In this document: piece by piece, positions 53,664 to 55,006 of the stretch
Numbering within the stretch: position 1 is the stretch's first letter
How the letters are laid out: the number at the start of each line of letters is the position of its first letter
From: Chamaelirium japonicum
Taxonomy: Eukaryota > Streptophyta > Magnoliopsida > Liliales > Melanthiaceae
NCBI GenBank assembly: GCA_947650365.1
Contig: OX393549.1
Location: 78,920,533-78,984,532 of the forward strand
Direction: 5' to 3'
DNA length: 64,000 nt
Notes under the pieces: generated by a model
Databases searched by the model: none
What the model was told of the DNA's origin: nothing
Seen by the model: the letters and a program-made list of their open reading frames with translations, nothing else
Made by a program: the position numbers and the translations under genes

Positions 53664-53758
53664 TATATATATATATATATATATATATATATATATATAT
53701 ATATATATATATATATATATATATATATATATATATATATATATATATATATATATAT
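53664..53758. repeat. (TA)n array
   Basis: First TA array of the 53.7-55.0 kb cluster, about 47 units. Confidence 0.98.
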
Positions 53759-53907
53759 GATCATGCTATAATGCGGCATGCGGTAAGTGCGACACCGCAC
53801 TACTACCGTCTGATGCACCGTTGTGTGTATGCGATACACACAGCGGGTGCATCAGACGGCTGCGGTGTGGTGCCGCACTTACCGCATGCCGCATTATAGC
53901 ATGCCCC
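53759..53907. mobile_element. TA-embedded palindromic element H3
   Basis: A foldback of about 148 bp: ATGCTATAATGCGGCATGCG ... TGTGTGTATGCGATACACAC ... CGCATGCCGCATTATAGCAT then CCCC. The arms pair nearly throughout. TA on both sides; no GA tract on the left. Confidence 0.9.
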
Positions 53908-53991
53908 TATATATATATATATATATATATATATATATATATATATATATATATATATATATATATATATATATATATATATATATATATA
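53908..53991. repeat. (TA)n array
   Basis: About 42 units between H3 and the GA tract of H4. Confidence 0.98.
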
Positions 53992-54157
53992 GAGAGAGAG
54001 AGAGAGAGAGAAATGCTATAATGCGGCATGCGGTAAGTGCGGCATCTTACCGCAGCCGTCTGATGCATCGCTGTGTGCATGCGATGCACACAGCGGGTGC
54101 ATCAGACGGCTGCGGTGCAGTGCCGCACATACCGCAAGCCGTATTATAGCATGCCCA
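53992..54157. mobile_element. TA-embedded palindromic element H4
   Basis: GA run, then the same palindrome as H3 (ATGCTATAATGCGGCATGCG ... TGTGTGCATGCGATGCACAC ... ATTATAGCATGCCC), then TA. Same orientation as H1 and H3. Confidence 0.9.
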
Positions 54158-54158
54158 C

Positions 54159-54229
54159 ATATATATATATATATATATATATATATATATATATATATAT
54201 ATATATATATATATATATATATATATATA
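54159..54229. repeat. (TA)n array
   Basis: About 35 units between H4 and H5. Confidence 0.98.
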
Positions 54230-54351
54230 CGTGCGGCACCGCACCGTAGCCATCTGATGCACCCGCTGCGTGCATCGCATGCACGCAGCGATGCATTAGA
54301 CGGCTGCGATAAGATGCCACACTTACCACATGCCGCAGTATAGCATGCCCC
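54230..54351. mobile_element. TA-embedded palindromic element H5 (left arm truncated)
   Basis: Starts directly at GTGCGGCACCGCACC, lacking the first 25 or so bases of the left arm, and ends ATAGCATGCCCC before TA. The centre is GCGTGCATCGCATGCACGC. The truncation point is flush with the TA array. Confidence 0.88.
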
Positions 54352-54498
54352 TATATATATATATATATATATATATATATATATATATATATATATATAT
54401 ATATATATATATATATATATATATATATATATATATATATATATATATATATATATATATATATATATATATATATATATATATATATATATATATAT
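54352..54498. repeat. (TA)n array, about 73 units
   Basis: The longest TA array in the window, between H5 and E5. Confidence 0.98.
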
Positions 54499-54950
54499 GT
54501 CAGGATCGGATGACCCAGTGAATTTTGACCCAGTAAATAATCCAGCACCCTTTGATGCACCTAGAGGTTTTAGAATGGGCTGATTTTTGGTAGACATGTT
54601 GTCTATGGTATGTTGATCATCCTCACAAAAAATCAGCCCATTCTAAAACCTCTAGGTGCATCAAATGCACTCTTTAAATCAACGGTTAAAATTGACAATC
54701 GAATACTGTTGATTTGAAGAACGCATTTGATGCACCTAGAGGTTTTAGAATGGGCTGATTTTTTGTGAGGATGATCAACATACCATAGACAACAACGCAT
54801 TTGATGCATCTAGAATTTTTAGAATGGGCTGATTTTTGTGAGGATGATCAACATACCATAAACAACATGCCTACAAAAAATCAGCCCATTCTAAAACCTC
54901 TAGGTGCATCAAATTGTGCTGGGTTATTGCTGGGTCAGCCGATCCCGACC
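54499..54950. mobile_element. TA-embedded hairpin element, copy E5
   Basis: Bounded by TA on both sides. Outer inverted ends GTCAGGATCGG and CCGATCCCGAC, followed by CCAGCA and TGCTGG motifs. Inside are at least five inverted or direct copies of TTTTAGAATGGGCTGATTTT around a centre with AATCAACGGTTAAAATTGAC. The arms match E1-E4, but this copy has an extra duplicated arm, and its ends are unlike theirs. Confidence 0.85.
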
Positions 54951-55006
54951 TATATATATATATATATATATATATATATATATATATATATATATATATA
55001 TATATA
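54951..55006. repeat. (TA)n array
   Basis: About 28 units; last of the cluster. Confidence 0.98.

What the first reader, a model, noticed from the sequence alone, without database searches (positions are those of the whole stretch)
53664..55006. Transposon beads on a (TA)n string: four elements in one 1.3-kb TA tract
Five TA arrays alternate with H3, H4, H5 and E5, with each element abutting TA DNA on both sides. Two other clusters (15240-16750 and 33090-33972) show the same alternation. Insertion into existing TA arrays, or elements that carry or create TA arrays, would both explain it. Rice Micron, described as a TA-microsatellite-targeting MITE, is the only precedent I know; these sequences are built differently (perfect palindromes and looped cores).
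Basis: partly seen in the sequence, partly recalled or inferred. Interest (0 to 1): 0.86.

Follow-up and report, generated by a model that had tools for sequence, protein, structure and literature searches.

The report
Mutator-like MITEs strung on TA repeats
Many families of small Mutator-type jumping genes in this apparently plant genome land inside TA-repeat DNA, which seems to regrow around them, giving strings of elements of a kind already described in rice, guayule, pineapple and Medicago.

Summary
At 53664-55006 five perfect TA arrays (56-147 bp) alternate with three hairpin-like ~150-bp elements (H) and one 452-bp element (E5). Random placement of the window's 12 TA arrays gave such clustering in 0 of 200,000 trials.

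The window lies in a 1.52-Gb, apparently plant genome where the pattern recurs. Of 2352 exact H ends, 1996 run straight into (TA)n.

Rare copies outside microsatellites show Mutator-type target duplications: perfect 9 bp in 2 of 7 E5 copies fetched, imperfect 8-10 bp in 2 of 9 H copies fetched.

A parity test (TA slippage moves in 2-bp steps) supports staggered insertion into TA. In capped listings from one contig, 30 of 30 complete E5 copies have odd flank parity, as a 9-bp duplication predicts; 15 of 16 H copies are even.

Total TA rises with the number of arrays while mean array length stays roughly 70 bp, so arrays seem to regrow after insertion.

This is the published SaTar/MuTAnT/mMITE phenomenon, not a new kind. 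New here: further families and the parity evidence. No autonomous partner was identified.

The parts
53664..53758 (.). TA array, 95 bp
53759..53907 (.). H3: hairpin-like H-family element (right end GCATGCCCC; left end GATCATGC is a variant)
53908..53991 (.). TA array, 84 bp
53992..54158 (.). H4: H-family element with a (GA)10 run at its GAGAAATG end
54159..54229 (.). TA array, 71 bp
54230..54351 (.). H5: H-family element lacking its left end
54352..54498 (.). TA array, 147 bp
54499..54950 (.). E5: element of the GGGTCAGGATCGG family, rearranged right part
54951..55006 (.). TA array, 56 bp
15569..15699 (.). TA array, 131 bp
15700..16047 (.). E-type element between TA arrays
16048..16092 (.). 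TA array, 45 bp
16093..16461 (.). E-type element with long inverted arms
16462..16508 (.). TA array, 47 bp
16509..16665 (.). H-family element with (GA)n left end
16666..16750 (.). TA array, 85 bp
33680..33775 (.). TA array, 96 bp
33776..33889 (.). short H-family element with (TC)n near its right end
33890..33971 (.). TA array, 82 bp

Best explanation
These are non-autonomous Mutator-like MITEs of several families that insert by staggered cutting into TA microsatellites. E5-type elements make a 9-bp target duplication. H elements make an even-length one (probably 10 bp, possibly 8). After insertion the TA on each side changes length in 2-bp steps by slippage and regrows towards a typical length of about 70 bp, so each insertion leaves fresh TA for the next, giving non-nested strings of unrelated elements. 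Shown: TA flanking in genome-wide end counts, duplications at a few non-TA copies, biased flank parity, roughly constant mean array length. Inferred: that a Mutator-type transposase does it, that growth follows insertion, and that arrays act as renewed landing sites.
For: Exact H termini: 2352, of which 1865 run straight into T-phase (TA)6 and 131 into A-phase; backwards control patterns 0. 26 have G/C at +4 and +8. E5 termini: 850 T-phase, 914 A-phase, 18 with G/C at +4 and +8. TSDs outside microsatellites: E5 L110 AGCTGCCAG and L112 ATTCGTCCT, both perfect 9 bp; H L104 TGGTTACA (8 bp exact, or 9 with one mismatch) and L106 AGTCAGTGTA/AGTCTGTGTA (10 bp, one mismatch). Parity, from the first 100 places listed per search, C1 only: 30 of 30 complete E5 copies odd, 15 in each arrangement; 15 of 16 complete H copies even (with for one copy). 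In fetched loci, E5 in element orientation gave 14 AA, 10 TT, 1 TA. Arrays: 76 chains, total TA versus number of arrays rho 0.88, mean per array 56-105 bp, 49 of 76 chains hold more TA than the longest single array, 230 bp.
Against: No autonomous partner was identified: PF10551 gave 1214 candidates, 150 scored, but no flanks could be fetched. H duplications outside TA are imperfect and only two. Of 7 E5 copies looked at because one end was not TA, 5 had no visible duplication; of 9 such H copies, 7 had none. H parity is not absolute: 34 even to 9 odd, 40 to 13 by looser rules. No E5 or H bead in this window's own string has both canonical ends, so none of them can be scored (raw phases). Mean array length falls slightly with bead number (rho -0.27, p 0.018). 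The chain sample was mostly chosen by H/E hits and is cut at locus ends. No orthologous empty site could be compared.
Confidence: 0.86

Rival explanations
1. Elements carry TA with them: circular intermediates with TA filler recombine into existing TA arrays (the model offered for SaTar elements in PMC5907723).
For: The model is published. Arrays are long on both sides of elements (median 59 bp left and right).
Against: A filler of fixed parity would fix one base arrangement per lineage in element orientation, but E5 shows 14 AA and 10 TT (orientation by alignment, median margin 43 bits). E5's odd parity matches its own 9-bp duplication outside TA.
Confidence: 0.06
2. TA arrays arise only after insertion, grown from element ends or from a TA-rich duplication in non-repeat DNA.
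For: (GA)n at H looks grown from its own GAGA end. Total TA increases with bead number.
Against: Element ends seen outside TA (GGGTC..., GGGGC..., GAGAA...) carry no terminal TA. The parity reading needs at least 9-10 bp of TA at the target (inference). The 89-bp array at 2768-2856 stands alone: its flanks match nothing else in the sequence held.
Confidence: 0.06
3. The TA runs are assembly artefacts at hairpins.
For: Hairpins and TA runs are hard to sequence; reads could not be inspected.
Against: 30 of 30 parity in listed E5 copies and the 1865:131 phase bias in H are not expected from collapse or padding. Two beads outside TA carry normal duplications.
Confidence: 0.02

Closest known systems
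SaTar elements, guayule and rice (PMC5907723; abstract, passages and sections 14 and 19 read)
   Same: Non-autonomous MULEs of many unrelated families in microsatellites, joined end to end by microsatellite, non-nested; 10-bp TSDs when outside microsatellites.
   Different: Their authors judged many microsatellite insertions inconsistent with cut-and-paste; here flank parity fits a staggered cut. Guayule families are about 380-1700 bp; H is about 150 bp.
MuTAnT, Medicago truncatula (PMC4486113; parts 1 and 2 of 4 of the text read)
   Same: Hairpin-forming foldback MULE in (TA)n, 9-nt TSD outside TA, GGGG end. The TIR mask used there, GGGGTTTGCTAGAACA, shares 11 of 16 bases, counted by eye, with H's GGGGCATGCTATAATG.
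   Different: 218 copies there; 2352 exact H ends alone here, and several families in one string. A putative autonomous element is described there, none found here.
Ac-mMITE-1/2, pineapple (PMC8449440; abstract, passages and section 7 read)
   Same: TA-flanked Mutator-like MITEs, 9/10-bp TSDs outside, non-nested clusters, (GA)n at one end proposed to arise by slippage, no autonomous element found.
   Different: Two families named there; sequences not compared (supplements not available).
Carrot MiMs (PMC8227079; passages read), rice Micron and maize TAFT elements (seen only as described in the papers above)
   Same: MITEs in TA stretches; TAFT arrays reported to expand after insertion.

Membership tests
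Microsatellite-targeted non-autonomous MULE (SaTar / MiM / mMITE kind) | copies predominantly flanked by microsatellite | tested here: met
   1996 of 2352 exact H ends run directly into TA; 30 of 30 fetched H loci, the window's own included, have at least (TA)4 within 50 bp on both sides
Microsatellite-targeted non-autonomous MULE (SaTar / MiM / mMITE kind) | terminal inverted repeats | tested here: met
Microsatellite-targeted non-autonomous MULE (SaTar / MiM / mMITE kind) | 8-11-bp TSD when outside microsatellites | tested here: met
   E5: 2 of 7 fetched copies, perfect 9 bp; H: 2 of 9, with a mismatch or 8 bp; the rest one-sided, truncated or fused
Microsatellite-targeted non-autonomous MULE (SaTar / MiM / mMITE kind) | non-nested strings of unrelated families joined by microsatellite | tested here: inconclusive
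   strings of unrelated families seen; nesting was not searched for systematically; fused pieces in L064 and L102
Microsatellite-targeted non-autonomous MULE (SaTar / MiM / mMITE kind) | autonomous MULE with matching TIR | tested here: inconclusive
   150 PF10551 matches listed, no flanks obtained
MuTAnT family proper | TIR sequence GGGGTTTGCTAGAACA | tested here: inconclusive
   11 of 16 bases shared with H by eye; no alignment to MuTAnT sequences possible
Rice Micron | sequence similarity to Micron | not testable with these tools
   no Micron sequence available
Stowaway / Tc1-mariner MITE | 2-bp TA target duplication (recalled) | tested here: not met
   9-bp duplications at two non-TA E5 copies

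The most novel reading that the evidence does not exclude
TA arrays are a self-renewing landing strip: each Mutator-type insertion, with a family-specific stagger (9 bp for E5, an even length for H, with H ends lying in one of the two TA phases about 14 to 1), splits an array whose halves regrow to the same equilibrium length, so colonisation enlarges its own target and many MULE families share the niche. Flank parity lets the lost duplication length be read inside pure TA DNA.
Probability: 0.5. Interest if true: 0.55.

Novelty: new member of a known kind. Interest (0 to 1): 0.42.

Why it matters
How MITEs reach TA microsatellites is called unclear in the carrot paper (PMC8227079, passage read), which cites recombination of circles as an alternative mechanism. 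Because TA slippage keeps parity, counting flank phases tests this in any assembled genome without empty sites. Here it favours a staggered transposase cut. Growing, re-used TA targets would also explain how such elements pile up without breaking genes or each other.

Tried and rejected
Micron as sole precedent: rejected after the literature searches. Perfect-palindrome reading: corrected. Stowaway-type TA duplication: rejected. Autonomous partner: sought through PF10551 and by listing stop-free frames in 33 inter-TA segments of 540 bp or more (the printed starts of several are low-complexity or proline-rich, and none was run against a family library); none identified. Four long H-to-H distances, taken as possible long elements, proved to be several beads each. 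A repeat end reading CTAGT..ATGCCCGTGCC that often borders TA in the loci held was to be counted genome-wide, but that search did not complete and was dropped. A FAR1-domain fragment (58456-58959, minus) was considered as part of a nearby MULE: the sequence bordering the last TA array at 55007 matches nothing else held, so no second terminus is known.

Full report
What is there. The reported tract is as described: five perfect TA arrays of 95, 84, 71, 147 and 56 bp separated by three H elements and E5. In the window 8 of 11 gaps between TA arrays are 460 bp or less; 0 of 200,000 random placements match that. H3 folds as one interrupted hairpin (z -17; arms 52 of 69 matching without gaps) and E5 as a long nested one (z -29). 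Details differ from the finding: H5 has lost its left end, H4 has (GA)10 before it, E5 is rearranged, and the 33-kb cluster has only one element between TA arrays.

Where it sits. The window is C1:78920533-78984532 of a 1.52-Gb genome in 3253 contigs, unnamed; that it is a plant is my inference. The first TA run listed on C1 already shows TA, H, TA, an E-type element and a short TA run. Ten arbitrary 5-kb stretches (46,089 bases without N) gave TA runs in 6 of 10, several with beads.

How common and how tied to TA. A DNA search with H3 had 2663 first-look candidates, 40 scored; with E5, 3246 and 40. The 30 fetched H loci, one of them the window's own, all have at least (TA)4 within 50 bp on both sides, though in L026 the left TA is short and broken. 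Of the 30 fetched E5 loci, L064 and L067 have no TA at the left end shown. Without choosing by flank, 2352 exact H ends were counted: 1865 go straight into TATATA..., 131 into ATATAT.... Of the first 100 ends listed, 20 missed the exact (TA)6. The 18 stretches fetched to cover them show TA in the other phase, short or imperfect TA, TA starting a few bases away, and in one case (L079) no TA. Only 26 of 2352 ends have G/C at both +4 and +8. In the sequence held, 242 of 289 near-full-length matches to the bead library had TA on both sides; this number is biased, because the library was taken from TA-flanked segments. Of 622 segment ends, 313 begin GGG and 78 begin with a GA array. Greedy clustering of the ends gave 176 clusters, most of them small; about 20 recurring types look distinct to me.

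Superfamily. Places whose exact end is followed by G/C at two spots were looked at: 9 of 26 for H and 7 of 18 for E5, the rest reading as other microsatellites in the bases printed. Two E5 copies carry perfect 9-bp duplications (L110, L112). The other five (L111, L113, L114, L115, L065) do not and have TA on the other side. Two H copies carry near-perfect ones (L104, L106). The other seven do not: one-sided, truncated, fused or between other repeats. Lengths of 8-10 bp point to Mutator-like elements, as do the GGG/GGGG ends. In L104 and L106 the left end reads GAGAAATG, so the (GA)n found at that end of many H copies (21 such ends in the loci held; 1007 places for a GA-end pattern that itself favours TC flanks) is probably grown from the element's own end, as proposed for pineapple (PMC8449440, passage).

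Parity test. In TA DNA a duplication cannot be read, but slippage in 2-bp steps keeps parity: an odd duplication leaves the same base before and after the element, an even one leaves complementary bases. Pairing the listed ends (100 places listed of 850 and of 914, all on C1; 194 ends in the shared range), all 30 complete E5 copies found are odd, 15 in each arrangement; no even pair appeared. Genome-wide E5 ends are 850 T-phase to 914 A-phase, as odd parity predicts. For H, one search printed 17 pairs; one is a spurious pairing of two left ends with one right end. Of the 16 copies left, 14 are even by exact (TA)6 on both sides, one is even by reading (L094) and one is odd (L084). H ends are 1865 T-phase to 131 A-phase. 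In fetched loci H was 34 even to 9 odd, E5 11 odd to 1 even, the rest 36 odd to 9 even. With looser rules H was 41 to 10 and E5 20 odd to 1, or H 40 to 13 and E5 24 odd to 1. In element orientation E5 was 14 AA, 10 TT, 1 TA, which argues for separate insertions rather than inheritance of flanking TA from one donor. The window's own beads have altered ends and cannot be scored.

Array growth. In 76 chains holding 308 arrays (20 bp or longer), total TA rises with the number of arrays (rho 0.88). Mean length per array stays between 56 and 105 bp, with a slight fall (rho -0.27, p 0.018). 49 of 76 chains hold more TA than the longest single array, 230 bp. Splitting of one old array of a size seen here cannot explain this. 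Regrowth towards a common length can. The sample was drawn mostly by element hits and is cut at locus edges.

Comparison with print. Abstracts, passages or sections of four papers were read: SaTar (PMC5907723), MuTAnT (PMC4486113), Ac-mMITE (PMC8449440) and carrot MiM (PMC8227079, passages only). They describe the same architecture: TA-flanked MULE MITEs, 9-10-bp duplications outside TA, and, for SaTar and Ac-mMITE, non-nested clusters. MuTAnT reports nine TA repeats on average at empty sites against 15 on each flank of filled ecotype sites, and the SaTar paper reports maize TAFT arrays expanded after insertion; both are in line with regrowth. A search for target site duplication, TA microsatellite, phase, Mutator and MITE together found only the MuTAnT paper, of which I read half. 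So I saw no parity test in this library, which does not prove there is none.

Verdict. A real, genome-wide instance of a known kind, with new families and a useful test of mechanism. The autonomous source and empty sites remain open.

Noticed in passing
window 53640-53663; L034:2905, L037:2059, L040:3192, L065:1972, L087:563, L092:481, L093:244: A repeat end reading CTAGTRNATGCCCGTGCC...GGCACG often borders TA or CA/TA arrays and may be another source of TA; the genome-wide count did not complete.
   Followed up: partly
window 58456-58959 (-): FAR1 DNA-binding domain fragment (Pfam PF03101, E 1.5e-06), about 3.5 kb from the string; FAR1-type domains also occur in some MULE transposases (recalled).
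   Followed up: partly
window 40905-41381 (+): Helitron_like_N domain (PF14214, E 6.7e-28).
   Followed up: no
L018:217-786 and L019:2264-2833: 570-bp elements with H-type ends and an AT-rich interior unlike H, a possible link to a larger H relative.
   Followed up: no
L024:562-1362, L029:631-1458, L061:699-1427, L078:573-1173: GGGGAGGGATACTC-ended beads of 0.6-0.8 kb with stop-free frames of 186-250 aa, some proline-rich where printed; perhaps captured gene pieces (Pack-MULE-like), not tested.
   Followed up: no
   Followed up: no
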